This document shows positions 14,683 to 39,228 of a stretch of DNA of 42,086 nt, in pieces. The stretch comes from Sedimenticola sp. (lineage in GTDB: Bacteria; Pseudomonadota; Gammaproteobacteria; Chromatiales; Chromatiaceae). Every line of letters begins with the position of its first letter. Position 1 is the first letter of the stretch. The stretch is from assembly GCA_026196795.1 (NCBI GenBank), contig JAPHUE010000064.1, positions 1 to 42,086 of the forward strand, written 5' to 3'. Under the pieces are notes generated by a model. The model was not told the DNA's origin, searched no databases, and worked only from the letters and a program-made list of their open reading frames with translations. The position numbers and the translations under genes were made by a program.

Positions 14683-15903
14683 TTAATTGTGTACGGCTGA
14701 TGAGAGATCCCACATCGGTAGAAATACCCCAAGGGCCAATACCAGTACCATTCCACCAATAATCACGATTATGATGGGCTCAATGGCGTCTGAGAGTCGT
14801 GCCAGGTCATACCTCACTTCGCGTTCATAATGCTCGGCCGTCTCCAGCAACAGATCATCAACTGCGCCGGTCTCTTCACCAATGGCAATCATCTGCAGTA
14901 CCATCGAGGTAAACATCCCGGTTGCCGCCGCTGTTCGAGCAATTGAATCACCACTCTCAATGCCATCCCGCATACTCAGTACACGTTCACTCACAAAGGC
15001 ATTATTGACTACACCAGAGATGACTGTAAGCGCCTGAACCAGGGGAACACCGGAACGCATGGCCAGTGCTAATGACCGGGCAAACCTTCCCAGGATAGCC
15101 TTTTTCAGAATCTTCCCTATCAGGGGTATCTGCAGAATCATGCGGGACCAGATATAACCACCACCCTCACTCATAATCCAGAATCGTAATCCAAGTAATC
15201 CGCCGAGTATTCCAGATAACAGGTAAGGCCACCAATTCAGGGTAAAACTGGAGAGACCCAAAAGAATCTGCGTAGCCATCGGCAGCTCAGCATCAAATCG
15301 GGCGAAGGCATCGGCAAACGCCGGAATGACGAAGATATTAATAATCACCAGCGCCACAACAATGGCAAGAATAACCGTCAGGGGATAACGTGTGGCACTT
15401 TTTATGCGATTCCGGGTCTCTTTCTCCAGCTCAAGATAGCCGGCCAACTGCAGGAAGGTCTCATCCAGTCTACCGGTACTCTCTCCAACCTTGATCAGAC
15501 TGATAAAGAGTGGCGAGAAGATATTCGGGTAACGCGCCAGTGCCATGTGCAGTTCACGGCCTGATTGAATATCGTCCGACACCCCTTTTAACGCGGAGGC
15601 CAGTGTCGGATTCGACGTGGTATCAATCAGGCTTCCCAAACTGCGTAGAATAGGCACACCGGCCTTCTGCAAGGTATAGAGCTGACGACAAAGTAACACC
15701 AGCTCATCCAAATTGACACCAGGCTTAAACCAACCGAGCTTAATCTCTTTGCTGGCACCACGACGTTCAACCGGGACAATATCGATTGGCGTCAGGTTGG
15801 ATCTAAATAACTGCTCGGCAATGGATTCTGCCGTTTCACCCTCAAGGGTGCCCGTCATGGACTCGCCACGACGATTTCGCGCTTTATATTCAAAGGCACG
15901 CAT
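14683..15903 (-). CDS. mshG: MSHA biogenesis platform protein MshG (GspF/PilC family)
   Basis: The inner-membrane platform protein on which the pilus ATPase acts to extrude pilin. The 406 residues have two T2SSF repeats (about 70-195 and 270-395), each followed by membrane helices, with hydrophobic segments near 172-192, 220-240 and 375-400. Motifs such as LYTLQKAGVPILRSLGSL and LALAMRSGVPLVQAL are typical of GspF. It is the last gene of the nine-gene operon. In Vibrio and Shewanella mshF and the pilin genes come next; here the operon stops and a convergent gene follows. Confidence 0.93.
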   Translation of the reverse strand: MRAFEYKARNRRGESMTGTLEGETAESIAEQLFRSNLTPIDIVPVERRGASKEIKLGWFKPGVNLDELVLLCRQLYTLQKAGVPILRSLGSLIDTTSNPTLASALKGVSDDIQSGRELHMALARYPNIFSPLFISLIKVGESTGRLDETFLQLAGYLELEKETRNRIKSATRYPLTVILAIVVALVIINIFVIPAFADAFARFDAELPMATQILLGLSSFTLNWWPYLLSGILGGLLGLRFWIMSEGGGYIWSRMILQIPLIGKILKKAILGRFARSLALAMRSGVPLVQALTVISGVVNNAFVSERVLSMRDGIESGDSIARTAAATGMFTSMVLQMIAIGEETGAVDDLLLETAEHYEREVRYDLARLSDAIEPIIIVIIGGMVLVLALGVFLPMWDLSSAVHN

Positions 15904-15934
15904 TAGATTACCTCAGCCGTCAATCCTGAACTCA

Positions 15935-17674: not shown

Positions 17675-17678
17675 ACCC

Positions 17679-19004
17679 TTATCGCTCCGCCGATAATGAC
17701 ATCACCCGCTGACGGGCATATTCTGTGACTTCATCAGGCAACGCATTCAAATTCAGTGCCTGCCTGTACAATTTTAACGCCTCTTCCTGTTCGCCATTTG
17801 CATCCAGTGATATGGCCAGACCAGCTATAGCGCGGGCATTATTCGACTGCTGAGCAACAAGCCGACGATAAATCTGAACAGCAGCAGAGAACCGACCGGC
17901 CTGCTGATAGAGCGAGCCCAGCATGGCCAGTAAATCCACATCACTACCGGATATAGGCAGCTGTTGCTCAAGTAAGCCGATTGCCTTGTTCTGCTCTCCA
18001 CTCTCAATAAACGCTCGACTGAGCAATAAAGCAAAAGGCACATATCCCGGTGCGATTTGCATACCTTCTGTAAGCAGCGAGAAAAAACGCTCTCGCTCAC
18101 CGGTATTCAATGACAGCATAGCTAATAATCGACGTGCCTCATGATTATCTCTATCCAGCGACAAGACGTGTAGTAAAGACGCTTCTGCGTCAGCGAGTCG
18201 TCCCTCATTGAGATGTAATAAAGCAGCCTCATACATCTCGTCTGCTGATGCCTTTACCTGTGCCGCCGGTACCTTTTTAAACTGAATCTGCGGCTTCATG
18301 GGAGGTGATTCAATCACAGATCGTGTTTTCTGGGTAACGGGTACAGCGACAACTTGTTCAGGTTCAGGCTTAACCCATGGAGATGTGATTGCTACTTTTT
18401 TATCTTCAGCCGAGTCTCTTTTTTTGTATTCAAGGGAGGATAGATCACCCAGTGATTTAGCTAACAACTGTTCTGCCGGCTGATCTCTGTCAGTCAGTTG
18501 CGTGCTGTCTTTAATGGGAGCGGCTGGTAAACGCTGTTCCAGAAGCGGTTTTGACTCAGGTTCATCAGTTACCTGCACGGTCTCAGTTTGTTGCTTTACC
18601 TGCTCTGCCTGCTCAACCATCACAACAGCTTTGTCCTCAGTAGTTTGCTTCTGAATAGTCACCGGCTTAGCCGGGTCTGCTGGGATCGTGTTTGTGATCT
18701 CCTGTTCGGGTAATGTCGTTTGCATTGGCGTGGCTTCAAAACCAACACTTGAAGTCGGCGTATCTGCTGGAACAGGGGCAGAAACCGGATCAAGTAACGA
18801 AGAGAAAAAGGGAGCCATCTGTGGTTGCAGATAAATTAGTGGCACTATGAGCACAACAATCAAAACCATCCAGACAATTACGCGACTGTGCTTTTTTCCC
18901 TTTGCACGCCCGGGTACTGGTTGCGGTGTTTTGATGACCCGCGGCGTCTCGTCAGCCCCTTCTCGCTGATCCAGGTCACGCAGCATCTGATTTATAAGAC
19001 TCAT
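17679..19004 (-). CDS. mshN: MSHA biogenesis TPR protein MshN
   Basis: A 441-residue protein that starts with MSLINQMLRDLDQR, the N-terminal signature shared by MshN and GspB-like proteins. One transmembrane helix follows (about 42-60), then a long polar Pro/Glu/Gln-rich periplasmic region (about 65-270) and several tetratricopeptide repeats (about 275-435). The layout suggests an inner-membrane protein whose periplasmic TPR domain contacts the secretin or peptidoglycan; the exact role of MshN is not established. Its start overlaps the mshM stop by four bases. Confidence 0.9.
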   Translation of the reverse strand: MSLINQMLRDLDQREGADETPRVIKTPQPVPGRAKGKKHSRVIVWMVLIVVLIVPLIYLQPQMAPFFSSLLDPVSAPVPADTPTSSVGFEATPMQTTLPEQEITNTIPADPAKPVTIQKQTTEDKAVVMVEQAEQVKQQTETVQVTDEPESKPLLEQRLPAAPIKDSTQLTDRDQPAEQLLAKSLGDLSSLEYKKRDSAEDKKVAITSPWVKPEPEQVVAVPVTQKTRSVIESPPMKPQIQFKKVPAAQVKASADEMYEAALLHLNEGRLADAEASLLHVLSLDRDNHEARRLLAMLSLNTGERERFFSLLTEGMQIAPGYVPFALLLSRAFIESGEQNKAIGLLEQQLPISGSDVDLLAMLGSLYQQAGRFSAAVQIYRRLVAQQSNNARAIAGLAISLDANGEQEEALKLYRQALNLNALPDEVTEYARQRVMSLSAER

Positions 19005-19894
19005 GAACCACCCCGCAGTACGGTTGTGGTATCACGCCTAAATAGGGTATGCCAGATTCGGGCAAATCTACCGGGACGCACAAAAGCATCTTCTGTGTCG
19101 TCGATGGCTCGCTTGAGATGGCTTTTGTCTATGCTTGGTTTTCCTTCACCATAAGCGGCCAACATCGCCTTGTGGGCCAGTATATTGATCAACCGGGGTA
19201 TGCCACGGCTACCACGACACAGCCAATCCAGTGCTTTTTCTTCAAACAGGTTTTCTCCCGGGTAACCGGCCACGCGCAGCCGATGATAGAGGTAACCCTC
19301 GCAACCTTCCCGTGTGAGGGGATGGATCGTATGTGAAAAAGTGATGCGCTGTTTCAACTGTCTAACTGAAGGACGGTTCAAATGATCATCCAGTTCCGGC
19401 TGACCAAACAGCACCACTTGCAGAAGTTTACTTTTTTCCGTTTCCAGATTGGTGAGCAGGCGAATGGCCTCAAGCGTCTCTTCGGGCAGGGCTTGTGCCT
19501 CATCCAGCAAAAGAATCACCTGTCGCCCCGAAGCCTTCAGTGCAATCAGCTTCTTATTGATCAATTGCAAGGCCCGATGCCCGCCAATATTCATGGGATA
19601 ATCCACACCCAACTCTTCTGCCAGACAGTAGCGGAGTGCAGAGGGCGTGAGATAGGGATTAGGGATATAGGCCGTCACCATTCCTTCATCAGAAAGAAGG
19701 TTCAGCAGCTTACGACAAATTAGAGTTTTACCTGTTCCTACTTCACCGGTTATTTTTAAAAAGCCCTCCCCCATGCGCAAGGCCACCAGGAGCACATTCA
19801 GTGCTTCCTGGTGATCAGCATATGAGAAGAAGTAATCCGTATCTGGTGTCAGACTAAAGGGGGGTTCTCTGAGTCCGAAGTGGGATTCGTACAT
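19001..19894 (-). CDS. mshM: MSHA biogenesis AAA ATPase MshM (ExeA family)
   Basis: A 297-residue AAA ATPase of the ExeA/GspA type, proposed to help place the secretin through the cell wall. It opens with MYESHFGLREPPFSLTPD, a family hallmark. Walker A is GEVGTGKT (residues 50-57), Walker B is LLLDEAQ with Asp131-Glu132, and the C-terminal helical lid contains SRGIPRLINILAHKAML. Unlike longer ExeA proteins it ends without a peptidoglycan-binding domain. It starts three bases after mshL and overlaps mshN by four. Confidence 0.93.
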   Translation of the reverse strand: MYESHFGLREPPFSLTPDTDYFFSYADHQEALNVLLVALRMGEGFLKITGEVGTGKTLICRKLLNLLSDEGMVTAYIPNPYLTPSALRYCLAEELGVDYPMNIGGHRALQLINKKLIALKASGRQVILLLDEAQALPEETLEAIRLLTNLETEKSKLLQVVLFGQPELDDHLNRPSVRQLKQRITFSHTIHPLTREGCEGYLYHRLRVAGYPGENLFEEKALDWLCRGSRGIPRLINILAHKAMLAAYGEGKPSIDKSHLKRAIDDTEDAFVRPGRFARIWHTLFRRDTTTVLRGGS

Positions 19895-19897
19895 AGC

Positions 19898-21649
19898 TCA
19901 CTCAGTTTTTTCACCGAGATTACCAAATACGTCAGGCTGGCTGCCGTAGTGGAAACCCTTGTCTAGCCTTTGGATACGCGATGCTGTATCCGAGACTCTG
20001 GAACGCCAAGTCTCAGCACTTTCCACAACGGTGGGTCTCAACACGATAACAAGCTCGCTCTTTTTCGCGGACTGGCGAGTATGACGGAAGAGTGAGCCGA
20101 CAAACGGCAGATCACCCAATAGCGGTGTAGAAGCAACCTCCTCACCCCGGGTATCCTGCATTAAGCCACCAATGACGACCAGCTGCCCACTCTGGGCATA
20201 CACCAGACTATCAGACTCTCTCACCGTACTTTTTGCCAACGGAAGATTCTGCGTCTCATTACCCACCTGGATTACCTTCTGTTGGTCCGTCACCTGACTT
20301 ACCGAAGGATGAATATGCAGGGTCACGCGACCAAATCGATCAATCTGTGGAGTGACATCCAGAGCAATACCAGAGAAAAACGGTGTCAGCGTAATATCGG
20401 GGGTTGTTGTGGTTGAGGTGCCAGTAGTAGTGGTACTGGAGACATCGGTGACAAAGAACTCATCACTGCCCACCTTGATAACTGCTTTCTGATTATTAAG
20501 TGTTGAGATACGTGGGCTGGAGAGTACCTGAACATTACCCTGGGATTCCAACAGCTCAATGAAGGCCATAAAACTACCGGTATTCAGCGCAGCACCAAAC
20601 AACCCGCCAAAGGCGGAAAAACTGGTGAAACTGACAGGCGAGGTCTCTGTTGGTGAACTGATCCCACCATCAAGTAATTCAACACCGGCTGATCCAGGAT
20701 TCTTGAACATGGTGGAACCGGAGCCGGTCTGTCCCATGCTGAAACTGTTGCCATCAACGGTCATCATCTTGGCCCAGTTGATGCCTGCCTGGAAGCCATC
20801 ATTCAGTTCAACCTCGATCACCTTGGCTTCAAGAATCACCTGACGATGCATCGCCTCATCCGTGGTCTCCAGAAAGGCCTCTACCTCTCGTAACTCATGA
20901 GGCATCGCACGTACCACTACAATGCCGGATTGTGGAGATACCACGACCGAGCGATCCGTTCCAGTACCGACAATTGACTGTAGGGCCGTAGAGAGTTCAG
21001 TCCAGAAATCTGCGTCTGAGGTGGTATTTATCTCACTTCCGGATGTGACGCCAGAGGCATCGCCACTATCATCACTGCTCTCTTCGCTATCGCCAGAACT
21101 GGAGACCTGGCCTGAACTGACCCGTGTCTGAGAACTGCCCGAGCGCTTCATGTTGAGGTAGTTGACCTGAAATATACGCGACTGAAGTCTTGCAGGTAAT
21201 ACATGAAAGCCGTTTCTGACGCTCTGATATTCATAGCCATAGACGTCACGTAATACATCCATCACATCTGGAATCGTGACCTGTTTCAAGCTCAGCGATA
21301 GCGCTCCCTCGACTTGTGGGTGTACCACCATATTATAGGGGGTACCTTCTACCAGACCCATCAAGAAGGCTCTAACGGGCACTTCGTTAACATTCACATC
21401 AAAACGGACAACCGTTGTGCGCTTGCTGGCTCTTGGCAGTTGCATATTTGCCGGTGGCAATAAGGCCGCACTCACAGCGGGGGGTGGAGTAGCCCTGGTT
21501 TTTTCAGTTTGCTTCGGTGGTGTTTTAAGCTGTTCCTGAATAGTAGCCATGGTGCCACCATCTTTTGGCGCCATACTCTGACAGCCGACCAGCAGTATCA
21601 GCGTCAGTGATGCCAAAGACGATCGAATCACACAACGAGTCAGGTTCAT
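19898..21649 (-). CDS. mshL: MSHA outer-membrane secretin MshL
   Basis: The outer-membrane pore through which the pilus passes. The 583 residues carry a lipoprotein signal peptide with a lipobox LVGC (Cys23), an STN/N0-like domain (about 80-155), a Ser/Asp/Gly-rich insert (about 170-212), an N1-like domain (about 225-280) and the secretin barrel (about 365-560) with SSPRISTLNNQKAVIKVG, LDVTPQID, SGQLVVIGGLMQD and the lip motif PLLGDLPFVGSLF. Its start overlaps the mshK stop by four bases. Identification as a pilus (MSHA type) secretin rests on domain order and the gene neighbourhood. Confidence 0.95.
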   Translation of the reverse strand: MNLTRCVIRSSLASLTLILLVGCQSMAPKDGGTMATIQEQLKTPPKQTEKTRATPPPAVSAALLPPANMQLPRASKRTTVVRFDVNVNEVPVRAFLMGLVEGTPYNMVVHPQVEGALSLSLKQVTIPDVMDVLRDVYGYEYQSVRNGFHVLPARLQSRIFQVNYLNMKRSGSSQTRVSSGQVSSSGDSEESSDDSGDASGVTSGSEINTTSDADFWTELSTALQSIVGTGTDRSVVVSPQSGIVVVRAMPHELREVEAFLETTDEAMHRQVILEAKVIEVELNDGFQAGINWAKMMTVDGNSFSMGQTGSGSTMFKNPGSAGVELLDGGISSPTETSPVSFTSFSAFGGLFGAALNTGSFMAFIELLESQGNVQVLSSPRISTLNNQKAVIKVGSDEFFVTDVSSTTTTGTSTTTTPDITLTPFFSGIALDVTPQIDRFGRVTLHIHPSVSQVTDQQKVIQVGNETQNLPLAKSTVRESDSLVYAQSGQLVVIGGLMQDTRGEEVASTPLLGDLPFVGSLFRHTRQSAKKSELVIVLRPTVVESAETWRSRVSDTASRIQRLDKGFHYGSQPDVFGNLGEKTE

Positions 21650-27507: not shown

Positions 27508-27933
27508 ATGGCCTATACCCTTAGAGATGGTCCGGGTTTTTACCTGTTACGTACCGCTGCACAGTTCAAACACTGCTTTGCCAAAACCTTACTGCCATAC
27601 CAGATTACGCCGGTTCAATTTGCCGTATTGGGACTTCTCTGGGAAAGCGATGGACTGACACAGCATGCAATAGCCGAGCGGCTCGGAAAGGACCGTCCCA
27701 ATGTCACACGCATTCTTGAAAAAATTGAAGCCAAGGCACTAATCACCCGCCAACGAGCCCCGAATGATCGCAGGGCAACACAAGTGTTTTTATCAAAACG
27801 TGGTAAAGCGTTAAGGCCCGAATTGGAAAACCTGGCTGTTACGTTTCGCATGAGTGCATACGAAGGTTTAACTGAAGATGAACAGACACAATTAAGCCAG
27901 CTCCTGACAAAGCTAATGGAAAACCTGCAATGA
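27508..27933 (+). CDS. MarR-family transcriptional regulator
   Basis: A 141-residue winged-helix repressor. The core reads ITPVQFAVLGLLWES, then the helix-turn-helix LTQHAIAERLGKDRPNVTRILEKIE, then the wing RAPNDRRATQVFLSKRG, and finally dimerisation helices. It overlaps the adaptor gene by four bases (ATGA), and a palindrome sits on its promoter. The simplest reading is that it represses the efflux operon and releases DNA when a small ligand binds; the ligand is unknown. Confidence 0.93.
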   Translation: MAYTLRDGPGFYLLRTAAQFKHCFAKTLLPYQITPVQFAVLGLLWESDGLTQHAIAERLGKDRPNVTRILEKIEAKALITRQRAPNDRRATQVFLSKRGKALRPELENLAVTFRMSAYEGLTEDEQTQLSQLLTKLMENLQ

Positions 27934-28994
27934 AACAGATAACAGCCATACTCTGCCTGGCACTCTCAGGTTACGGGGTAGGTTTCGGCCAGCCACTCTT
28001 CGCAGCAGAACAACCACCCGCCCGCGTGGTAGTCGAAGCGGTCTCAGAGAAAGTAATCGCGACCCGTAGTAATCTGACCGGGGTAGTTGACTTCGACCGA
28101 ATATCAGCCGTCTCAGGCGAGACGTCTGGACGTGTCATTGAACAACATGCCGTAGAGGGGGCTTTAATCAAATCAGGCCAGACCTTACTCGTGCTGAACA
28201 GTGACCTGATACTCAAAGATATGGATATCAAGCAGAAACAGCGCGCCCAGGTATCAGCCGATATCGAAAAACTGAACCGCACGCTGAAACGCCTTGAAAG
28301 CCTGCTCGCGACGAACTCAGCCAGCCGCCAAGCCTATGATGATGCGCGGTTTGATCATCGGTCATTACAAAAGAAACGTGAAGTCCTTGATGAAGAGATG
28401 GCCAGATTACAGCTGCAGCTCAATATGAGTACTGTGACAGCACCCTTTGATGGGGTAGTACTGGAAAAACTAAAAGAGCGCGGTGAGTGGATTGACCCCG
28501 GTTCCGCTATCTGCAAACTGGCCTCTACCAATGATCTGGTTATCAGGGTTTCAATTTCGGAAAACCTGGCACGCTATCAAACTGTAGATTTAGCGGTTCC
28601 TGTCACTATACCGGCACTTGATTTGAAGCTTACCGGCAAAATCCTGGGTTTAATGCCGGTAGCTAATCTGCGTAGTAAAAGTCTCACACTGAAGATCAGC
28701 ATCCCCTACCAGACCGGCATGGCACAGAACATGTCTGCCACCGTTGAGATCCCTACCAGCACCCCAACAACATTGCGCATGCTCCCCCGGGATGCCCTGG
28801 TAAATTTCAAAGGTAAGGATTTTGTTTATACCGTCAAGGATGGAAAGGCAAAAATGCTTCCCATATCTATCGTAGTACGCCGTGGTGACATGCTAGGCGT
28901 TCAAGACCCATCCATTGCGGCCGGCATGCGCGTTGTGACCGATGGCAATGACCGTCTCCGTCCCGACCAAGCTGTACAGATTATAGAGAAATAA
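27930..28994 (+). CDS. RND efflux periplasmic adaptor subunit
   Basis: A 354-residue membrane-fusion protein of the HlyD/AcrA class, joining an RND pump to an outer-membrane channel. It has an N-terminal signal peptide (about 1-26), a barrel-sandwich half (SGETSGRVIEQHAVEGALIKSGQTLLVL), an alpha-helical hairpin (about 95-160), the second lipoyl half (TVTAPFDGVVLEKLKERGEWIDPG), a beta-barrel and a membrane-proximal domain. No lipobox Cys follows the signal, so it is probably anchored by its partner. It overlaps marR and precedes the permease by ten bases. Confidence 0.93.
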   Translation: MKQITAILCLALSGYGVGFGQPLFAAEQPPARVVVEAVSEKVIATRSNLTGVVDFDRISAVSGETSGRVIEQHAVEGALIKSGQTLLVLNSDLILKDMDIKQKQRAQVSADIEKLNRTLKRLESLLATNSASRQAYDDARFDHRSLQKKREVLDEEMARLQLQLNMSTVTAPFDGVVLEKLKERGEWIDPGSAICKLASTNDLVIRVSISENLARYQTVDLAVPVTIPALDLKLTGKILGLMPVANLRSKSLTLKISIPYQTGMAQNMSATVEIPTSTPTTLRMLPRDALVNFKGKDFVYTVKDGKAKMLPISIVVRRGDMLGVQDPSIAAGMRVVTDGNDRLRPDQAVQIIEK

Positions 28995-29004
28995 CGGACT
29001 ACTG

Positions 29005-32000
29005 ATGGATATCGTAAAACAGTCGATCGACCAGCCCGTCTCCACCTTTGCCGTGGTGATACTCGTAATCCTGTTTGGTCTGATTGGTCTTAATCGCCTT
29101 CCCGTTCAGCTCACACCTGATGTAGAAGCACCCAAAATCAGTGTCCGAACGACCTGGCCCGGTGCAAGCCCCTATGAGATTGAAAAAGAGATTATTGAGA
29201 AGCAGGAAGAGGTCCTCAAGAGTGCGCCCGGGCTGGCCATTCTTGAGAGTTCCAGCTTTAACGACTATGGAACAATTAGCCTGACATTCAAGGTGGGTAG
29301 CAACCTGAATGATGCCATGGTACAGGTTTCCAACAAACTTAATGAGGTTACAGAGTACCCGGAGAACGCATTAAAACCGGTTGCCAGTACATCAAGTGAG
29401 GAGAACTCACCGGTTATCTGGATGATGTTAAAAACCAAATCAGGTGACCCGTCTCGCATCACTACATTCAAAACATTTTTTGATAATGAAGTCAGGCATC
29501 TACTGGAGCGAGTACCAGGAGTTGGCTCGCTGTTTCTCTTTGGCGGCAGTAACAAACGTCTGGAGATCAATGTAGACCCTCAACGTTTAGCGGCACACCA
29601 AATCACACTTGGACAAGTGATTAATCGTGTTCAGAGTGCCAATAGCAACACATCGGCTGGGGTACTTGGCTTATCGAAACGTAATTACCGTATTCGTACA
29701 ACCAGTCAATTTCAAACGCCTGATGAAGTTGGTGAAACACTGTTGATCGATGACGGCCTTAATCGGGTCAAGCTCCAGGAGTTGGCAGAGACACGTTTTG
29801 GTTATGCCGCCAATCCGCCTGCGGTACTCCATAATGGACAGCCCATGATTGTAGTGGGTGTCAGGAAAGAGGCAGGAGCCAATGTCCTCGAGCTCACTAA
29901 ACAGATGCGTCTGGTGGTTGATGAGCTGAATGAAACCCTGCTGGATGAAAATGGTCTGTTTTTCGATTGGGTCTATGATCAGGCCCCCTATATCAACACG
30001 GCCATCGATACGGTAAAGACCAATCTCATGATTGGCGGTGTGTTGGCAATTGTGGTGTTGCTGCTATTTCTTCGCTCAACAAGCGCCACACTCACTGTAG
30101 CAATCGCTATTCCAATTTCCGTTATGGGTACCTTCTTTTTCATGTACCTGTTCGATCGAAATATCAACGTAATGAGTCTGGCTGGCATCACATTCGCAGT
30201 GGGCATGCTGGTGGATAATTCGATTGTTGTACTGGAAAATATTGATCGCCATCGGCGTATGGGAAAAAGTGCCTTCCAGGCTTCCTATGATGGCACACAA
30301 GAGGTCTGGGGAGCCGTGCTGGCATCAACCCTGACAACCGTTGCTGTCTTCTTGCCCGTCCTGTTTATTGAAGAGGAAGCGGGACAGCTCTTCCGTGATA
30401 TCGCCATTGCTATCACTGCCTCAATCACCATCAGTCTTTTTGTCTCAATATCGGTTATTCCTGCCGTCACGAATAAGTTTTACGGTATGACAAAGCGCCC
30501 GGTAGATGAACAGATCGCAACAAGGGATAACGGAAACCTATTTGTTCGAAGCTTGATGTTTCTATCAAGTCTCACACTAAAAAACAGCTTCTCCCGACTA
30601 CTGACGGTAGCCCTGTTCACCACGCTCTCATTATTTGCTGTGATCGCCCTGATCCCCAAGGCGGAGTATCTACCGCAGGGCAATCGCAACCTGATCTTGA
30701 ATATTCTGGTGCCTCCACCCGGTTACTCTGAACAGAAACGCGAGGAGATTGGTGAATATATTCACTCAGAACTCGCACCCTATCTGGCTGAAGATGGCAA
30801 AGACGGCATTCCCCAGATCAGCAACATCTTTTATGTGGCATCAGACGCTGTGACGCTTTTCGGTGGGACCAGTGTGCATGTCGAGAGAGCACGGGAGATG
30901 ATGCCCCTGTTCACCCGCGTCATGAATGCCATACCCGGGATGTTTGGTGTCAGCATACAGCGCGGCATCTTTGAGACCGGTATTGGCCAGGGTCGTAGCG
31001 TGGATGTGAATGTCTCTGGCATTGAGACTGAACAGATAGTCGCCGCCGCCCGGTCACTTTTTGGCGCTATAAAACAGGCCATTCCTGACGCCCAGGTACG
31101 ACCGGTGCCTTCACTGGAGATCAGTTATCCCGAGGCTAATATCATCCCCGACCGATCCAGTGTACTGGCCAATGGACTAACGGAACGAGAACTTGGCATC
31201 TATATCGACATACTGATGGATGGAAGAAAAATCGGTGAGTACAAACCCGATGGTAAAAAAGTGATGGATCTCGTGGTAAAAAGTGGACAAGGCACTGAAA
31301 ACACGCCAGAAGATCTGCTGCAAAGGACTATAGCCAATCGCTTTGGTGAGTTGGTCAGAATCGGCGACATGGCCTCTATCAGCTATGCACAGGGGATGAC
31401 CCAGGTGGATCACCTGGAACGCAAGCGAAATATTCGCCTGCAAGTTACTCCACCTGACACCATGCCGCTGCAGCTGGCCATGGAGACCATCTCTGACCAG
31501 TTAGTACCCAAGCTGCAGCAAGATAAAAAACTGTCAGGGGTAAAAGTCTCTGTAGGTGGAAATGCAGACAAACTCACTGAGACCCGCATTGCGTTGCAGT
31601 GGAATCTTCTGATGGCCGTTGTGATCACTTACCTGTTGATGTCAGCCCTGTTTGGTCACTATCTCTACCCGCTGATTATTCTCTTTTCCGTACCCCTGGC
31701 TGCAGCCGGTGGCTTTATCGGCCTTAAACTGGTTGACACCTTTATTGCGCCACAACCGTTCGATATTCTGGTCATGCTGGGTTTCATTATCCTGGTCGGC
31801 ACAGTGGTCAATAATGCAATCTTAATTGTTCACCAAACCCTTAATAATCTTCGCAATGAGGGCCAGGAAGGACTGGATGCCATCACTCACGCCGTACGTA
31901 CCCGAATCCGTCCCATCTTCATGAGTACCACCACCAGCCTGTTTGGTCTCTTGCCACTGGTATTGGCTCAGGGCTCTGGAACAGAACTCTATCGAGGCCT

Positions 32001-32115
32001 TGGCAGTGTAATTTTAGGTGGACTGGCACTCTCTACACTCCTCACACTGTTTGTAATTCCCGCGCTTCTGGCCTTTCTGATCAAAATCAGGGTCAATCAG
32101 CCCGATCAAGCATAA
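29005..32115 (+). CDS. RND efflux transporter permease
   Basis: A 1036-residue inner-membrane proton-driven pump with the 12-helix RND layout: helix 1 (about 13-30), a large porter loop (about 35-335), helices 2-6 (about 338-490), helix 7 (about 535-555), a second porter loop (about 560-860) and helices 8-12. In helix 4 the proton-relay pair of AcrB (DD) reads DN in GMLVDNSIVVLENI; in helix 10 the AcrB Lys position reads Asn (VGTVVNNAILIVHQ). This pattern resembles SwrC-like HAE-1 pumps. There is no outer-membrane channel gene next to it, so it probably uses a TolC encoded elsewhere. Substrate cannot be told. Confidence 0.94.
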   Translation: MDIVKQSIDQPVSTFAVVILVILFGLIGLNRLPVQLTPDVEAPKISVRTTWPGASPYEIEKEIIEKQEEVLKSAPGLAILESSSFNDYGTISLTFKVGSNLNDAMVQVSNKLNEVTEYPENALKPVASTSSEENSPVIWMMLKTKSGDPSRITTFKTFFDNEVRHLLERVPGVGSLFLFGGSNKRLEINVDPQRLAAHQITLGQVINRVQSANSNTSAGVLGLSKRNYRIRTTSQFQTPDEVGETLLIDDGLNRVKLQELAETRFGYAANPPAVLHNGQPMIVVGVRKEAGANVLELTKQMRLVVDELNETLLDENGLFFDWVYDQAPYINTAIDTVKTNLMIGGVLAIVVLLLFLRSTSATLTVAIAIPISVMGTFFFMYLFDRNINVMSLAGITFAVGMLVDNSIVVLENIDRHRRMGKSAFQASYDGTQEVWGAVLASTLTTVAVFLPVLFIEEEAGQLFRDIAIAITASITISLFVSISVIPAVTNKFYGMTKRPVDEQIATRDNGNLFVRSLMFLSSLTLKNSFSRLLTVALFTTLSLFAVIALIPKAEYLPQGNRNLILNILVPPPGYSEQKREEIGEYIHSELAPYLAEDGKDGIPQISNIFYVASDAVTLFGGTSVHVERAREMMPLFTRVMNAIPGMFGVSIQRGIFETGIGQGRSVDVNVSGIETEQIVAAARSLFGAIKQAIPDAQVRPVPSLEISYPEANIIPDRSSVLANGLTERELGIYIDILMDGRKIGEYKPDGKKVMDLVVKSGQGTENTPEDLLQRTIANRFGELVRIGDMASISYAQGMTQVDHLERKRNIRLQVTPPDTMPLQLAMETISDQLVPKLQQDKKLSGVKVSVGGNADKLTETRIALQWNLLMAVVITYLLMSALFGHYLYPLIILFSVPLAAAGGFIGLKLVDTFIAPQPFDILVMLGFIILVGTVVNNAILIVHQTLNNLRNEGQEGLDAITHAVRTRIRPIFMSTTTSLFGLLPLVLAQGSGTELYRGLGSVILGGLALSTLLTLFVIPALLAFLIKIRVNQPDQA

Positions 32116-32293
32116 CAACCGCCTCCACGATTAAATTATAATTATTTAGTCCATTAATTCTCTTTTATTGCTCAATTAGGTCTTTTAACCCACCCGGAAT
32201 AGTAAAATAAGTCTCATTTAATACCAACCTTGCCATCCTCAGGGAATGCAGGTAAAGATGGACATTGAAAGTCATCACTAAAGCACTCAAATA

Positions 32294-32328
32294 ACTGGCC
32301 GATAACCATAACTAGACCAGCGGCCAGT
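32294..32328. repeat. inverted repeat in the DUF1631 leader
   Basis: ACTGGCCG (32294-32301) and CGGCCAGT (32321-32328) are perfect 8-base arms around 19 bases, ending about 26 bases before the DUF1631 start. It could be an operator or a leader hairpin. The rest of the 239-base gap is AT-rich and shows no clear promoter. Confidence 0.3.
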
Positions 32329-32354
32329 AAACAAAAGAGTCAAGGAAGCAGCAT

Positions 32355-34715
32355 ATGGAAGAGTTGTCCACTAAAACAACGGCCACTCAGCCTCAAAAGA
32401 AAAACACGAAACTCCTGAGCGAATGCAAGGATATGGTGCTGGTTTATCTCACCACCCAGCTCAATGAGTTGTTTGAGCAGGTCGAACCCGTTTTTCTGGA
32501 TTTTGCCAAGAAAGCAGAAACCAACGCCTCTCAAGTCAAATTTTTCGACTCAATCAACCATATCCTCTCTCTTCGCGACGTGATTGAGCATGATTTCAGA
32601 GAAGGTATCGAAAAAGGTTTTGATGAGTTTAATCAGGGTAAGCATATCACCTACCCGAACACACCCATGGATGATGCCGGGGAAGTGGAACTCGAGATGG
32701 TGGATAACGATGAGCTTGAAGAGCACCTCGCTATTCAGAGCATGATCTCGAAAGTCCAAAATAACTGCTACCAGGAGCTGTTTGCACTAGGCAAACGCAT
32801 GGCCGTCCTGCGTGGTGGAAAAAAACTGGCCGAGGATGATATACCGGCTTGCCCTGCACACACCGCGATTTCCTTTCAAAAAGCGGCAGAAGCACTGGAT
32901 GTCGACAAACAGATACTGTTGATATTCTACTTTCTGTTTGGAAAATTCGTACTGGGTGACGCAGCGACCATTTACAAGAGCCTTAATGACAGACTCATTG
33001 AAGAAGGCATCTTTCCCAACCTGAAGCTAAGCTCCATCAGGCCGCCCAGTAACGCAGACAACCCAGCCGTACCAAATAATCCTCTTGAGGATTCACTAGA
33101 CGGCACCACCGAAGGGCAAGGGCAGCCTCAGCACTATCAACAAAGTGCTCCACAACAGAGTGCCAGAGCCCCTGGTCAAAGCGGAGCAGCGTCCAGACAA
33201 GGCACCATGGCCCTTGGTGAAGAGTTGTTTAACTCCATTCATGACCTGTTGACAGCTCGCCGAGCAGCAGACCCCAACTACAGTAATCATCCCGAATTTG
33301 CCCCTGGGGGTAACACAACGCAGCTTAAGAGCGCACCCGCCATTGTCCAGGTGATTGATCATATACAGCCGCAAGTCCAGGCTGATTATCTGCCCGACCC
33401 TGACAGTGACGAGGGTATACCCCAGTCAATCGAGCTGGATACCAACCTGATTCAGAATGTTCGTCGAACACTTGAGTCGGAACGTACAAAACTGCTGGGA
33501 GAGTTGGATAAAGACACCGTACCGGCTGCTGACCTGGATACCATTGAACTGGTTGGCATGTTATTCGAACAGGTTTTGAATGAAGAGGGTCTAGCCAACA
33601 TAGCTAAGGCATTGATCAGCCATCTGCATACCCCTTATCTTAAAGTGGCAATCCTGGATCGTCGCTTCATGACCGATGAAGAACATATTGCACGACGACT
33701 GTTAAACCTGATGGTCGACTCAGGGAAGCGCTGGATCGATGAAGAGGATTTGCGCCGCGGTTCCTACTACCCGACGCAAGAGATTGTTAAGGCGATCTTG
33801 TCAGAGTTTAAGAATGAACTCTCAATATTTGATGAGATGTTCTATAAACTTAAAGAACAGATTGACGAACTTGAGAGCCGCGCAAAAATCCTGGAAGAGC
33901 GAAATCAGGAAGCAGCCAAGGGTCGTGAGCGACTTGAAACAGCCAGACAGACTGCAAAGGATCTTATAAAAGAGCGCACAAAAGGTCGGAGCCTGCATCC
34001 AGTCCTTGATCGCTTCCTCTACCATGCCTGGCAAGACCGCATGATTTTGATGCTGCTGCGAGATCCTGATGTTGAAAAGAGCAAGGAGTGGAGCTCAGCA
34101 CTGGCTGTTATTGACAGTCTGGCGCGAGTAATGGAAGCAAAACGCAATCCCAAGATAAAAGAGTGGTTGACCAACAACCATAAAAACCTGACTCAGCACA
34201 TCAAGGCAGGGCTGACCTCACTCGGAAACTATCACCACCCAGATAGTCATGCCCTTTTCAAACTATTGGATACCGTATTAAAAGAGCAACCCGTTGAGCC
34301 ATTGGAAAGCGAACAGAAACAAACACCCATCGAAGTATCTGAACCTATTATCAAGCCCGTGGCCACTTCCGAAAAAAGTGCAGAACCAGTAAAACCTGAA
34401 ATATCAGATGAAGAACTGGAGATGCAGCAGGTACTTCGTAAAGTAAAATTTGGCACCTGGTTTGAACTTACAGATGAAAACAACAAATTACGACGCTTAA
34501 AACTCTCCTGGTTCAGCCCAATTACACACAAATATATGTTTGTGGATCGATTTGGCATCCAGGCATACATCACACCATCTGAAGAGCTTGCGAAGCAGAT
34601 ATGTGAAGGCAAGGCCAGTATCATCAAGCCAAGCGGCATTCCATTTGTCAGCAAGGCGCTTAAAACTATACATACTATCTTACAGAAAACAGTGGGTATG
34701 CATCCTGCTACCTAG
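32355..34715 (+). CDS. DUF1631 family protein
   Basis: A 786-residue cytoplasmic protein of the DUF1631 family, found in beta- and gammaproteobacteria and without an established function. The N-terminal half is helical, interrupted by a Gln/Ser/Pro-rich linker (about 235-290). The central part (about 360-650) contains SHLHTPYLKVAILDRRFM, ARRLLNLMVDSGKRWIDEEDLRRG and a coiled coil (about 495-545). The C-terminus (about 690-760) has FGTWFELTDENNKLRRLKLSW and FVDRFGIQAY, which look like a PilZ/YcgR-like beta domain; this similarity is my inference. AAGGA precedes the start. A true PilZ gene follows after 19 bases, which strengthens the link to c-di-GMP. Confidence 0.88.
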   Translation: MEELSTKTTATQPQKKNTKLLSECKDMVLVYLTTQLNELFEQVEPVFLDFAKKAETNASQVKFFDSINHILSLRDVIEHDFREGIEKGFDEFNQGKHITYPNTPMDDAGEVELEMVDNDELEEHLAIQSMISKVQNNCYQELFALGKRMAVLRGGKKLAEDDIPACPAHTAISFQKAAEALDVDKQILLIFYFLFGKFVLGDAATIYKSLNDRLIEEGIFPNLKLSSIRPPSNADNPAVPNNPLEDSLDGTTEGQGQPQHYQQSAPQQSARAPGQSGAASRQGTMALGEELFNSIHDLLTARRAADPNYSNHPEFAPGGNTTQLKSAPAIVQVIDHIQPQVQADYLPDPDSDEGIPQSIELDTNLIQNVRRTLESERTKLLGELDKDTVPAADLDTIELVGMLFEQVLNEEGLANIAKALISHLHTPYLKVAILDRRFMTDEEHIARRLLNLMVDSGKRWIDEEDLRRGSYYPTQEIVKAILSEFKNELSIFDEMFYKLKEQIDELESRAKILEERNQEAAKGRERLETARQTAKDLIKERTKGRSLHPVLDRFLYHAWQDRMILMLLRDPDVEKSKEWSSALAVIDSLARVMEAKRNPKIKEWLTNNHKNLTQHIKAGLTSLGNYHHPDSHALFKLLDTVLKEQPVEPLESEQKQTPIEVSEPIIKPVATSEKSAEPVKPEISDEELEMQQVLRKVKFGTWFELTDENNKLRRLKLSWFSPITHKYMFVDRFGIQAYITPSEELAKQICEGKASIIKPSGIPFVSKALKTIHTILQKTVGMHPAT

Positions 34716-36235: not shown

Positions 36236-36667
36236 ATGCCCAAGGAGAGATTCACAATTACGACCGTAGAGTGGGAAACACATAAACCCGCACTCAGGGA
36301 GATTAGAGAGTCTGTTTTTATAGTTGAGCAGCAAGTCCCAAAGCAACTCGAGTGGGATGACAAGGACGAGACATCACTTCATGTCATCGCAACGGACACG
36401 ACTGGCAAGGGCATTGGTACAGGACGTATCACCAGTGAAGGGCAGATAGGACGCATGGCTGTAGTGTGTGAATGGCGGAACACAGGGGTGGGTAGCGCAC
36501 TACTTCAGAGGCTTATTGAACTAGCGAGTCAACAAAAAATACGGCCCTTATTCCTGAACGCACAAAAAAAGGCCATCCCATTTTACCAACAACATGGCTT
36601 TGACTGTATTGGCGACGAATTTATGGAAGCCGGTATACCTCACCACCGCATGGAGCAGAAAAGCTAG
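36236..36667 (+). CDS. GNAT family N-acetyltransferase
   Basis: A 143-residue acetyl-CoA-dependent transferase of the GNAT fold. Visible parts are REIRESVFIVEQQVPKQLEWD (substrate side, as in YjcF/ElaA-like members), GRITSEGQIGRMAVVCEWRNTGVGSALLQRLIELA with the acetyl-CoA pyrophosphate loop (R/Q-x-x-G-x-G/A as RNTGVG), and FYQQHGF near the end. Substrate is unknown. It is the first of three plus-strand genes spaced by 24 and 18 bases. Confidence 0.9.
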   Translation: MPKERFTITTVEWETHKPALREIRESVFIVEQQVPKQLEWDDKDETSLHVIATDTTGKGIGTGRITSEGQIGRMAVVCEWRNTGVGSALLQRLIELASQQKIRPLFLNAQKKAIPFYQQHGFDCIGDEFMEAGIPHHRMEQKS

Positions 36668-36691: not shown

Positions 36692-37219
36692 ATGAAAGAT
36701 AATCTCAACATTATGCTGACTGAACAACACCTCGGAGAAGAGAGCGAGAGACTGATCCTTGAAGGGCGTAAAGCGTTTCAACAAGCCAGTGAACTAATGG
36801 CAAAGCAGGCAACACAACGCATCGATATATTCACCTATGACCTTGATAAGCCGCTGTATGATCAAATAACGTTTATCGAGGCCATTAAATCACTCGCATT
36901 ACACCAGCGTGGTATCAGCATCAGGATATTGCTGCAAAATAATCAGCGGGTGCAAAACGAAGGTCATCGGCTGCTTGAACTGGCGCGGCGATTAACCAGC
37001 AAAATTGCGATTAAGCGACCACATGAAGATTACATTGATCATGCTGAAAATTTCATGATTGTTGACAATACAGGCTATATCAGAAGAAAAGCAGCCGATC
37101 GCTATGAGGGTGAAGCGAACTTCTGCGATCGGCTTGGCTCTAAGTTATTATCCGAATTTTTCACTGACGTATGGGAACGAAGTGAACCTGAAAGCACACT
37201 TCGCAGACTCTATATTTAG
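36692..37219 (+). CDS. DUF7931-type protein, degenerate phospholipase-D-like
   Basis: A 175-residue cytoplasmic protein that appears to be a DUF7931 member; function unknown. The pattern is reminiscent of one half of a phospholipase D fold: QRIDIFTYDLDKPLYD (first strand region), ISIRILLQNN, then HAENFMIVD (residues 117-125) where an HxKxxxxD motif would stand, and GEANFCDRLGS. The Lys is Glu and the spacing is one residue longer, so enzymatic activity is unlikely. No clear Shine-Dalgarno precedes the ATG; an ATG eight codons later is possible. It lies between the GNAT and secretin-like genes. Confidence 0.75.
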   Translation: MKDNLNIMLTEQHLGEESERLILEGRKAFQQASELMAKQATQRIDIFTYDLDKPLYDQITFIEAIKSLALHQRGISIRILLQNNQRVQNEGHRLLELARRLTSKIAIKRPHEDYIDHAENFMIVDNTGYIRRKAADRYEGEANFCDRLGSKLLSEFFTDVWERSEPESTLRRLYI

Positions 37220-37237
37220 TCTTAAAGAGGTACTTTA

Positions 37238-38062
37238 ATGCCCCGGCTCCCACTTGCTCTATTTTTACTGCTATGCTGCAGCACGCTATATGCTGATTAC
37301 CCTCTGGAGATAATACAACTCAAGAGTCGGGCTACTGATGAGATCATCCCCATAATCAAGCCATTTATTGACAAAGATGGCTCCATTGCCGGCATGAATG
37401 ATCAGCTGATTATTCGTACTTCCCCAACCAATCTGGCAGAAATAAAAAAAGTCCTGCAACAACTGGATCATCCACCCAGAAGCCTGATGATATTGGTTCG
37501 TCAATCAGCCGGAGGAGGAACCGCGCAACGCAGATCACAAGCAGACATTAATCTCATGATAGGCAAACACGCCAAGGTAGGTGTGGGCAATCCTACTAAT
37601 AACAGCAGTATCCAATACAGAATCAGAGATGCGAGAACCAGCAGTGACCTGGATGCCACCCATCGTATCCAGGTATTAGAAGGCTACCCTGCCTTCATAA
37701 CTACCGGTCAATCTGTACCTGTCCCAGAACAGACAACCATAGTTAATAACAATACCGTTCACCAACAGATTACAACGCGTTATAAAAATGTAACCAGTGG
37801 ATTCTATGTTGTGCCACGACTAAATGGTGATCGAGTCACACTCGAAATCAGCCCCCGGCTAAATCGGCCAGGTTCTCAGCAAGGCCGCTACGATATTCAG
37901 CAGGCTGATACTATGGTCGCGGGCAGGCTGGGTGAATGGATCCGCATAGGGGGCGTTAATCAGCAGCAGCGGCTAGATACAAATGGCCTGTTGCGTGAAT
38001 CCAGAACCTCCAATCGTGATAACCGTACGATTGAACTACTGGTTCAGGAAGTGAAGCATTAG
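37238..38062 (+). CDS. miniature secretin-like protein (NolW/secretin domain)
   Basis: A 274-residue exported protein with a signal peptide (about 1-19), an N1/NolW-like domain (about 20-90, VEIIQ-like strand LEIIQLKSRATDEIIPIIKPFI and LIIRTSPTNLAEIKKVLQQLD), a basic Gly/Gln-rich linker, and a shortened secretin homology region (about 140-245): RIQVLEGYPAFITTGQSVPVP, GFYVVPRLNGDRVTLEISPRL and GEWIRIGGV. The PLLGDIP-type lip motif that ends normal secretins is absent, as is N0. AGAGG precedes the start. It may be a secretin-derived outer-membrane or periplasmic protein; whether it forms a pore is unknown. Confidence 0.82.
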   Translation: MPRLPLALFLLLCCSTLYADYPLEIIQLKSRATDEIIPIIKPFIDKDGSIAGMNDQLIIRTSPTNLAEIKKVLQQLDHPPRSLMILVRQSAGGGTAQRRSQADINLMIGKHAKVGVGNPTNNSSIQYRIRDARTSSDLDATHRIQVLEGYPAFITTGQSVPVPEQTTIVNNNTVHQQITTRYKNVTSGFYVVPRLNGDRVTLEISPRLNRPGSQQGRYDIQQADTMVAGRLGEWIRIGGVNQQQRLDTNGLLRESRTSNRDNRTIELLVQEVKH

Positions 38063-38239: not shown

Positions 38240-38249
38240 TTTATAATAT
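38230..38249. promoter_or_regulatory. 20-base AT-rich palindrome over the -10 box
   Basis: ATATTATAA-TT-TTATAATAT is a perfect palindrome with 9-base arms that covers the -10 hexamer and the predicted transcription start. It is placed like a repressor operator, but AT-only palindromes can arise by chance. Confidence 0.4.
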
Positions 38250-38272
38250 TGCAGTTTAGGATATCCCTGGTA

Positions 38273-38779
38273 GTGAAGAAGTTTAGTCGTACCCTGCTCA
38301 TAGTTGCCCTATTTTCCATCCCTTTTATTGCCCATGCCGCCTCGCTCGGTTTTCCGGTAGTTAATGATTGGTCATTAGAAGCGACCTCCGCCATGGAAGC
38401 ACAAAAACCTATTATGGTGGTATTCAGTTCAGATAGTTGCCAATACTGTGACAATCTCACCGAGCAGGTTCTTCGACCACTCATAAACAACGGTAATTTA
38501 AACCACCGGGTACATCTGCGTGAATATAAGACAAATCGTGGTGGAAAAGTCCGCGATTTCGATGGTGAACCAATACGTAGCCGAATATTTGTCACCCGTT
38601 ATCAGATTTTCGCTACACCCACGGTTCTCTTTCTCGCCCCTAATGGAGAGATCATAGGAAAGCCTATTGTTGGGTTTAACAGTGCGGAGAGTTACCGCCC
38701 GCTACTGGATGAAGCGATCAGTAAAGCTGCCGCATATCACTCCTATCGCTCTCCAGCAATTGTTACTCGAGTGCAATGA
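38273..38779 (+). CDS. periplasmic thioredoxin-like protein
   Basis: A 168-residue exported thioredoxin-fold protein. After the signal peptide (KKFSRTLLIVALFSIPFIAHA) it has KPIMVVFSSDSCQYCDNL with active-site CQYC (Cys56, Cys59 from this start), and the cis-Pro region FATPTVLFLAPNGEIIG. The insert between them (about 45 residues) is basic. It resembles SoxW/DsbD-gamma-like thiol reductases, but assignment to sulfur oxidation is not supported by neighbours. I chose GTG 38273, with AGGA 11 bases upstream; the frame opens at TTG 38249. It is followed by a Sel1 gene. Confidence 0.85.
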   Translation: MKKFSRTLLIVALFSIPFIAHAASLGFPVVNDWSLEATSAMEAQKPIMVVFSSDSCQYCDNLTEQVLRPLINNGNLNHRVHLREYKTNRGGKVRDFDGEPIRSRIFVTRYQIFATPTVLFLAPNGEIIGKPIVGFNSAESYRPLLDEAISKAAAYHSYRSPAIVTRVQ

Positions 38780-38868
38780 AGAACGATTGGACATACCCAG
38801 AGCATAAAACTTCAATCAAGGGCCTGATTAGACTAAAATGGCAGCTTAATTTAACTAAAGTTGATCCC

Positions 38869-39228
38869 ATGAAAAAAGCCTGCCGTAAATATATTCTTAT
38901 CGCCGTTCTAGCAACGCTGTTCTCTGCCCCGTTACTAGCGGATCTTGAAGCCGGCTTGACTGCCTATGCACAAGGCAACCATGCCGAGGCATTTAAGCAA
39001 TATCAACTCGCTGCAAATTCTGGCAACCCGGACGCCTTTGGAAAACTGGGCGGCATGTACCTCTATGGACTTGGCACAGAAAAAAACTACCCTGATGCCT
39101 ATTACTGGTTCGGAATGGCGCAACAGTCCGGGGATAAATATGCAGAAAAGTTCAAACTCACAGCTTCATCCATGATGAGTATGGAGCAGGTAAAGCAGGT
39201 TGAAGAGAGACTTGCAGCAGATAAATAG
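38869..39228 (+). CDS. Sel1-repeat exported protein
   Basis: A 119-residue protein with a signal peptide (MKKACRKYILIAVLATLFSAPLLA) and one to two Sel1-like TPR repeats (about 40-100: EAFKQYQLAANSGNPDAFGKLGGMYLYGLG and DAYYWFGMAQQSGD). Such proteins usually act as periplasmic scaffolds; no partner can be named. The frame is open from 38776, but the ATG at 38869 directly starts a classical signal peptide, so I use it, although its ribosome binding site is weak. A terminator follows at 39281. Confidence 0.8.
   Translation: MKKACRKYILIAVLATLFSAPLLADLEAGLTAYAQGNHAEAFKQYQLAANSGNPDAFGKLGGMYLYGLGTEKNYPDAYYWFGMAQQSGDKYAEKFKLTASSMMSMEQVKQVEERLAADK

What the first reader, a model, noticed from the sequence alone, without database searches (positions are those of the whole stretch)
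37238..38062. Miniature secretin without the lip motif, outside any secretion operon
The protein has a signal peptide, one N1/NolW-like domain and a shortened secretin homology region (TTGQSVPVP, GFYVVPRLNGDRVTLEI, WIRIGGV) in only 274 residues. It lacks N0 and the PLLGDIP-type segment kept by MshL in the same window. It is encoded after a GNAT enzyme and a degenerate PLD-like protein. A reduced secretin could form a small pore, cap another secretin such as MshL, or have lost pore function.
Basis: partly seen in the sequence, partly recalled or inferred. Interest (0 to 1): 0.55.

Follow-up and report, generated by a model that had tools for sequence, protein, structure and literature searches.

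The report
Widespread short secretin lacking membrane rim
A small exported protein has the core of the ring-shaped channels that bacteria use to push pili and proteins through their outer membrane but lacks the part that anchors them there, and it is a conserved family of its own rather than a broken copy, with an untested role.

Summary
ORF 37238-38062 (+) encodes 274 aa: signal peptide, one N1-type domain, then a secretin core without the PLLGDIP lip. It is neither truncated nor degenerate. Of 90 distinct complete relatives none has the lip motif; the loop there is 24 aa in 83 of 90 and mostly hydrophilic, against 36 aa with a hydrophobic patch in the 7 ordinary secretins compared. An AlphaFold2 model (mean pLDDT 64) matches solved secretins over its length. 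I count the family in 83 of 276 Gammaproteobacteria genomes. It usually follows a housekeeping locus: DUF7931 upstream in 52 of 62 loci, purB in 40. In two genomes, however, a PilT/PilU pilus ATPase follows it directly. Presence does not track GspD and weakly tracks PilQ; in four carriers PilQ is the only other secretin found. The missing part is what published structures describe as the membrane rim, so I infer a periplasmic secretin-fold protein, probably ring-forming and serving the type IVa pilus, rather than an independent pore. Function is untested. The paper searches made found no description of the family.

The parts
37238..38062 (+). mini-secretin gene, 274 aa
   Evidence: length and core conserved in 90 distinct members
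37224..37230 (+). AAAGAGG, Shine-Dalgarno-like, 7 nt before the ATG
   Evidence: sequence
37238..37294 (+). signal peptide, residues 1-19, likely cleavage A19/D20
   Evidence: by eye: hydrophobic N-terminus; A19 at least 90% conserved and ADYP the consensus in 24 relatives; no signal-peptide program run
37307..37480 (+). N1-type secretin N domain, residues 24-81
   Evidence: Pfam Secretin_N 26.7 bits, under cut-off 28.2; model residues 1-61 vs XcpQ N-domain structure 4ec5, Z 11.6, rmsd 1.1 A, 61 aligned
37514..37651 (+). variable linker, residues 93-138, low-confidence in the model
   Evidence: pLDDT < 50, mean column entropy 2.95
37652..37957 (+). secretin core with gate hairpin, residues 139-240, ending in the family signature GEWIxIGG (W234)
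   Evidence: Pfam Secretin 35.9 bits; W234 98% conserved; whole-model matches to pIV, PilQ, GspD, InvG
37958..38029 (+). short hydrophilic loop, residues 241-264, at the place of the beta-lip and amphipathic helical loop
   Evidence: 24 aa here and in 83 of 90 members (range 20-26), 36 aa in 7 ordinary secretins
38030..38053 (+). last core strand IELLVQEV, residues 265-272
   Evidence: alignment; V269 88% conserved
36692..37219 (+). DUF7931, PLD fold without HKD lysine; the most constant neighbour
   Evidence: Pfam PF25559 143.4 bits; fold; next upstream on the same strand in 62 of 85 places (gap between matches 6-524 nt) and in 52 of 62 loci
36236..36667 (+). GNAT acetyltransferase
   Evidence: Pfam PF13673 72.1 bits; same order in 24 of 62 loci

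Best explanation
It is an exported protein of a distinct secretin family that has lost the element by which secretins enter the outer membrane. Shown here by computation: N1-type domain plus secretin core with gate hairpin; constant loss of the lip; conservation across Gammaproteobacteria; usual locus beside DUF7931. Inferred: the signal peptide takes it to the periplasm; the conserved core strands let copies associate edge to edge into a ring or partial ring as in known secretins; without the hydrophobic rim the ring stays periplasmic. Most speculative: the ring works with the type IVa pilus channel, for example helping PilQ assemble or guiding or sealing the pilus below the gate.
For: Fold: whole-length matches to solved secretins; the first unrelated match is at E 0.14. 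Lip: 0 of 90 members carry the motif; loop 24 aa in 83 of 90 vs 36 aa in 7 of 7 ordinary secretins; highest 12-residue hydropathy -0.59 at the median vs 1.16-1.66. PMC6532946 (passages read) says the beta-lip and the amphipathic helical loop form the only clearly hydrophobic rim and that the helical loop is in all secretin structures then known. In this family that position is the second most variable of ten regions (entropy 3.11; gate loop 3.12), the core segments 1.57-1.98. Selection: dN/dS 0.21 in the one usable pair. Partner: PilQ over its cut-off in 78 of 83 carriers vs 154 of 193 non-carriers (p 0.002); 3 of the 5 low carriers have PilQ pieces. GspD 54 of 83 vs 128 of 193, no association. 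In carriers G059, G157, G255 and G256 the Secretin model finds only PilQ besides, at most, the mini-secretin. In 2 genomes (L041, L046) a PilT/PilU type IVa pilus ATPase is the next gene on the same strand, 59 and 95 nt on.
Against: No direct evidence of a ring, of periplasmic location or of a PilQ contact. PilQ is so common that the association is weak, and shared ancestry and genome reduction are uncorrected. G092 and G321 carry the gene (G092 only a partial match) without a recognised PilQ. Many PilQ genomes lack it, so it cannot be essential for pili. The PilT/PilU neighbour was seen in only 2 genomes. In 14 of 90 members the loop is mildly hydrophobic (maximum 0.97). The core model is only moderately confident (mean pLDDT 63.8, pTM 0.53) and its full-length superpositions have rmsd of about 5-9 A. 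A probable Pseudomonas relative, PA2633, stands in the OuterMembrane block of one proteomics table, a class assigned by prediction.
Confidence: 0.46

Rival explanations
1. It is a small independent outer-membrane pore: the core strands form a barrel with a gate and the short hairpin tips still touch the membrane.
For: Core and gate hairpin are kept; the phage f1 secretin pIV is the top structural match and its PHROG family the only PHROG match (2.5e-12). PA2633 is in the OuterMembrane block of a surface-shaving proteome table (PMC8959810).
Against: The rim described as the membrane-embedded part is missing in all 90 members and its place is mostly hydrophilic. The proteome's localisations merge predictions and 75% of its proteins are cytoplasmic.
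Confidence: 0.2
2. It is a monomeric or dimeric periplasmic binding or scaffold protein that has lost ring formation and uses the N1-type domain and core for another partner, perhaps in envelope maintenance.
For: No fixed machine partner; housekeeping locus in most cases; low confidence in and around the core; independence from GspD.
Against: The positions conserved are those of the secretin core (G149, G157, P161, G188, F189, G232, W234, G238), hard to explain if the core no longer assembles.
Confidence: 0.24
3. It is a dedicated cap or modulator of MshL.
For: MshL lies about 16 kb away in this window.
Against: Carriers G059, G157, G255 and G256 have no MshL by a Secretin model that does find MshL in the window genome; no MshL-like ORF in the other 62 loci.
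Confidence: 0.03
4. It is a truncated or decaying secretin gene without function.
For: Short length, no lip.
Against: 90 distinct members of mature length 220-286 aa, median 255; all 8 other same-genus genomes searched keep it; dN/dS about 0.2.
Confidence: 0.02

Closest known systems
Type IV pilus secretin PilQ and type II secretin GspD (TIGR02515, TIGR02517)
   Same: N1-type domain, secretin core with gate hairpin, GG-containing outer-wall strand, last core strand
   Different: No N0, single N domain, no beta-lip or amphipathic helical loop, loop 12 residues shorter, GEW instead of GET/GQL/GQM/GQV, not in a machine operon in most loci; scores 33.2 and 38.8 bits against cut-offs 284 and 351
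MSHA secretin MshL (same window, 19898-21649 minus)
   Same: Secretin core
   Different: Keeps TPLLGDLPFVGSLF and a 36-aa loop, different N domain (Secretin_N_2), 583 aa, in the MSHA cluster
Filamentous phage secretin pIV (7ofh; PHROG 1012)
   Same: Best structural match and the only PHROG match; both are short
   Different: No tblastn match in 50,697 phage records; that pIV is an outer-membrane pore rests on the PDB title
Mitochondrial GspD of jakobids and relatives (PMC8134430, passages read)
   Same: A reduced secretin
   Different: Reduced the other way: by the authors' model it keeps the amphipathic helical loop, and it lacks the N domains
P. aeruginosa PA2633 (Q9I0K5), 'Secretin_N domain-containing protein' (PMC8959810)
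   Same: Probable member by gene order: relative L154 is flanked by purB-RoxA-GNAT-DUF7931 and isocitrate lyase; PMC12203948 (passage) places PA2633 next to aceA; the rest of the PAO1 order is recalled

Membership tests
Secretin domain superfamily (PF00263) | Score over the curated cut-off | tested here: met
   35.9 vs 27.5 bits
Secretin domain superfamily (PF00263) | Secretin fold | tested here: met
   39 PDB matches at E <= 0.001, by their titles secretins or secretion complexes; VIA-align Z about 8-10.8 over most of the model; model confidence moderate
Secretin short N domain (PF03958) | Score over the curated cut-off | tested here: inconclusive
   window protein 26.7 vs 28.2 bits; relative L154 49.1 bits, over it
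Outer-membrane secretin channel (PilQ/GspD/MshL/InvG kind) | Beta-lip and amphipathic helical loop, the membrane-embedded rim | tested here: not met
   0 of 90 members with the motif; loop 20-26 aa vs 36 aa; mostly hydrophilic; role of the rim from PMC6532946 passages
Outer-membrane secretin channel (PilQ/GspD/MshL/InvG kind) | Ring of about 12-15 copies in the outer membrane | not testable with these tools
   No multimer prediction or bench work
Outer-membrane secretin channel (PilQ/GspD/MshL/InvG kind) | Encoded with its secretion or pilus machine | tested here: inconclusive
   61 of 62 loci (10-19 kb) show no secretion ATPase, platform or full secretin ORF by homology to five queries; but a PilT/PilU ATPase follows the gene in 2 genomes, L041 and L046
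Type IV pilus secretin PilQ (TIGR02515) | Score over 284.35 bits | tested here: not met
   33.2 bits
Type II secretin GspD (TIGR02517) | Score over 351.35 bits | tested here: not met
   38.8 bits

The most novel reading that the evidence does not exclude
A widespread family in which the secretin fold has been freed from the outer membrane: a soluble periplasmic secretin ring that serves the type IVa pilus machine as a second, inner ring under PilQ, usually kept in a housekeeping locus and overlooked because it is annotated only by its domains.
Probability: 0.28. Interest if true: 0.72.

Novelty: new variant of a known kind. Interest (0 to 1): 0.52.

Why it matters
The secretins compared here are known as outer-membrane channels. 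A conserved family that keeps the core and gate but has lost the membrane rim would show which parts of the fold suffice for assembly, and would add an unrecognised envelope component to about 30% of the sampled Gammaproteobacteria (83 of 276), probably including Pseudomonas. It also gives a natural lip-deletion series for asking what the amphipathic helical loop does.

Tried and rejected
Truncation or pseudogene: rejected, see rivals. Phage or plasmid origin: no relative by tblastn in 50,697 phage records or 72,556 plasmid records; the viral contig scan gave 14 pattern matches and no relative. Type II secretion partner: rejected for lack of association. MshL cap: see rivals. A fusion suggested by a 1234-residue open frame in L044: rejected as an accidental stop-free frame; the mini-secretin starts at its own Met near the end. 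Promoters and terminators around the genes: 5 promoter-like sites against 5.2 expected, 0 terminators, nothing usable. dN/dS was unusable for most pairs because synonymous sites are saturated. A first neighbour clustering (50 loci) gave unnamed clusters and was replaced. Literature: no paper holds DUF7931; searches on short, truncated, orphan or NolW-like secretins (listings only seen), 'Secretin_N domain-containing protein', PA2630-PA2633, Q9I0K5, and secretin with purB/roxA/ycfD (listing only) gave no description of the family. Of the 5 papers naming PA2633 I read passages in four (one section part) and not PMC7527494; in two of them the term is PA2633.1, an sRNA, and the third uses PA2633 as a flanking gene. 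The library holds only open-licence PMC papers.

Searches mended this: a PilT/PilU ATPase follows the gene in two genomes, and four carriers show PilQ as the only other secretin. For these facts I raised the best explanation from 0.42 to 0.46 and the novel case from 0.25 to 0.28, and lowered the monomer rival from 0.27 to 0.24.

Rows dropped before counting: I counted 85 places in 83 genomes, leaving out second pieces of the same reading frame, matches inside frames of about 590 aa or more (ordinary secretins), the partial match G292:C2 (219-aa frame), the second piece G104:C352, and everything weaker than 2.2e-11; one search's list was cut ('more matches are not listed'). Several places counted are partial matches, some at contig ends (for example G092, G141, G174). 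In one search, 4 of the 36 matching genomes (G013, G014, G031, G089) are weak matches inside 662-699-aa frames, so about 32 of 93 are of this family. In one search only members with HMM start <= 30, end >= 265 and a stop codon were kept; two members lack the GEW-like pattern, and the maximum of 186 residues after it is a pattern artefact. The model used there was built from 24 lipless members, which favours such members. The 62 loci are 40 of the 85 places, 6 from the hits, and 16 of the 23 named loci; with one or two queries per gene the neighbour counts are lower bounds. L041, with the second PilT/PilU neighbour, is not among the 62; it came up when all 159 held loci (140 with a model match, many of them the same genomes) were scanned. 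The counts 54 of 83 (GspD) and 78 of 83 (PilQ) were read by me from the best E-values at the estimated cut-off; G145, G252 and G287 are borderline and counted as having GspD.

Full report
WHAT IS THERE. The window is contig G000:C46 of a genome whose nearest named relatives are Sedimenticola. ORF 37238-38062 (+) encodes 274 aa, 18 nt after the stop of the DUF7931 gene and with AAAGAGG 7 nt before its ATG. Pfam finds the Secretin domain at residues 140-248 (35.9 bits, cut-off 27.5) and Secretin_N at 24-81 (26.7 bits, just under its cut-off of 28.2). The N-terminus is a signal peptide by eye (no predictor was run); A19 is at least 90% conserved and ADYP is the consensus boundary in 24 aligned relatives.

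IT IS A FAMILY. All 8 other same-genus genomes searched carry it at 58-79% identity. In a sample of 276 Gammaproteobacteria genomes I counted 85 places in 83 genomes, some of them partial matches. In 199 genomes across the phylum 18 matched at E <= 1e-12, 4 of them outside the class. Ninety distinct complete members have mature lengths of 220-286 aa, median 255. In Sedimenticola the one pair with low synonymous divergence has dN/dS 0.21. The gene is not a truncation.

THE MISSING PART. In the 7 ordinary secretins compared (4 PilQ, 2 GspD, the window's MshL) the loop between the GG[LIV] strand end and the last core strand is 36 aa each time and holds the PLLGDIP-type segment. In the 90 members the loop is 20-26 aa, 24 in 83 of them, the motif is found in none, and the best 12-residue hydropathy is -0.59 at the median against 1.16-1.66. 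Fourteen of 90 members rise above zero and the highest reaches 0.97, so a few are less polar. Column entropy at this place is 3.11, against 1.57-1.98 in the core segments; of ten regions only the gate loop, 3.12, varies more. [quoted passage not shown] The family lacks that element. It has instead an almost invariant tryptophan (W234, 98%) in GEWIxIGG, where the 7 ordinary secretins show GET, GQL, GQM or GQV.

FOLD. AlphaFold2 on 24 sequences gave mean pLDDT 63.8 and pTM 0.53: the N1-type part is near 90, residues 73-119 of the mature protein and several hairpin tips are below 50. Foldseek's 39 matches at E <= 0.001 are by their titles secretins or secretion complexes; the best is phage pIV (7.7e-9), and the first unrelated match is at 0.14. 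VIA-align gives XcpQ N-domain structures at Z 11.6 (rmsd 1.1 A, 61 aligned) and whole-length alignments to InvG, GspD, pIV and PilQ at Z about 8-10.8 with rmsd about 5-9 A. So the fold is secretin-like, but the exact geometry of the core is not established.

SURROUNDINGS. DUF7931 is the next match upstream on the same strand in 62 of 85 places (6-524 nt between the matched stretches). DUF7931 occurs in 116 of the 276 genomes, and 71 of the 83 carriers have it (Fisher p 1.4e-22, not corrected for relatedness). In 62 loci examined more closely DUF7931 is upstream in 52, purB in 40, GNAT in 24, RoxA in 17, and the full order purB-RoxA-GNAT-DUF7931-mini-secretin in 10; Pfam confirmed these identities in L154 only. 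Nine of the 62 loci show none of these neighbours; in L159 the gene follows trmD. Searching the 62 loci with a secretion ATPase, a platform protein, MshL, PilQ and GspD found another ORF in one, L046: 95 nt after the mini-secretin lies a PilT/PilU-family type IVa pilus ATPase (444 bits, cut-off 319). A scan of all 159 held loci found the same neighbour in one more genome, L041, 59 nt on (438 bits). Neither of these two loci has DUF7931 upstream.

PARTNERS. PilQ is over its cut-off in 78 of 83 carriers and 154 of 193 non-carriers (p 0.002). Of the five carriers below it, G292 and G224 have PilQ pieces on two contigs each and G201 one piece; G092 and G321 show none. GspD: 54 of 83 against 128 of 193, no association. 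In carriers G059, G157, G255 and G256 the Secretin model finds one full-length secretin, at the PilQ place, and otherwise at most the mini-secretin; the same search finds PilQ, MshL and the mini-secretin in the window genome. If there is a partner machine, it is the type IVa pilus. PilQ is so common that the association itself is weak evidence, and relatedness and genome reduction are uncorrected.

A LEAD IN PSEUDOMONAS. In L154 the order is mnmA, purB, RoxA, GNAT, DUF7931, mini-secretin, isocitrate lyase, PhoX, then nuoA and nuoB. PMC12203948 (passage) places an sRNA between aceA and PA2633 of P. aeruginosa PAO1; by recall the PAO1 order around PA2629-PA2638 fits as well, so PA2633 is probably the relative. 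PMC8959810 (section 14, part 1 read) lists PA2633 as 'Secretin_N domain-containing protein' in the block that begins with OuterMembrane, abundance ratio 0.01 in multidrug-resistant against wild-type strains. The localisation there merges predictions, so the table shows only that the protein is made. Its sequence was not compared.

READING. Published structures put the membrane contact of secretins in the lip and amphipathic loop. A protein that is exported, keeps the core and gate, and lacks that rim, with the rest under purifying selection, is best explained as a periplasmic secretin-fold ring or adaptor. Serving the type IVa pilus is the likeliest job, on thin evidence. An independent pore (about 0.2) and a non-assembling periplasmic protein (about 0.24) remain open.

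NOVELTY. The fold is known; the family is annotated at domain level. The ten paper searches made found no description of it (one search looked for structural background only). I file it as a secretin-domain protein, not as an outer-membrane secretin channel, because the rim was tested and not met.

Noticed in passing
window 36692-37219: DUF7931 is a confident PLD-fold protein (pLDDT 90) closest to TrmBL2 and Zucchini but without the HKD lysine; it is wider spread (116 of 276 genomes) than the mini-secretin. Function unknown.
   Followed up: partly
L046 8361-9551, L041 8876-10078: A PilT/PilU-family pilus ATPase gene directly follows the mini-secretin in these two genomes, which lack DUF7931 upstream.
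   Followed up: partly
window 38249-39228: A thioredoxin-like protein and a Sel1-repeat protein follow the mini-secretin and recur there in several Sedimenticola loci.
   Followed up: no
window 14683-21649: MSHA-type pilus genes, minus strand: T2SSF, MshE-like ATPase, TPR protein and MshL.
   Followed up: partly
window 27930-34715: HlyD/RND efflux pair followed by a DUF1631 protein.
   Followed up: no
G091 contig 1 (L027, L128, L141): Both pilQ and the mini-secretin appear frameshifted in this single-contig genome; assembly indels are likely, joint decay not excluded.
   Followed up: no
G321 and G140: Two mini-secretin matches each; G321 shows no recognised PilQ.
   Followed up: no
L158, L159: Members outside the class lack DUF7931 nearby; in L159 the gene follows trmD.
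   Followed up: no
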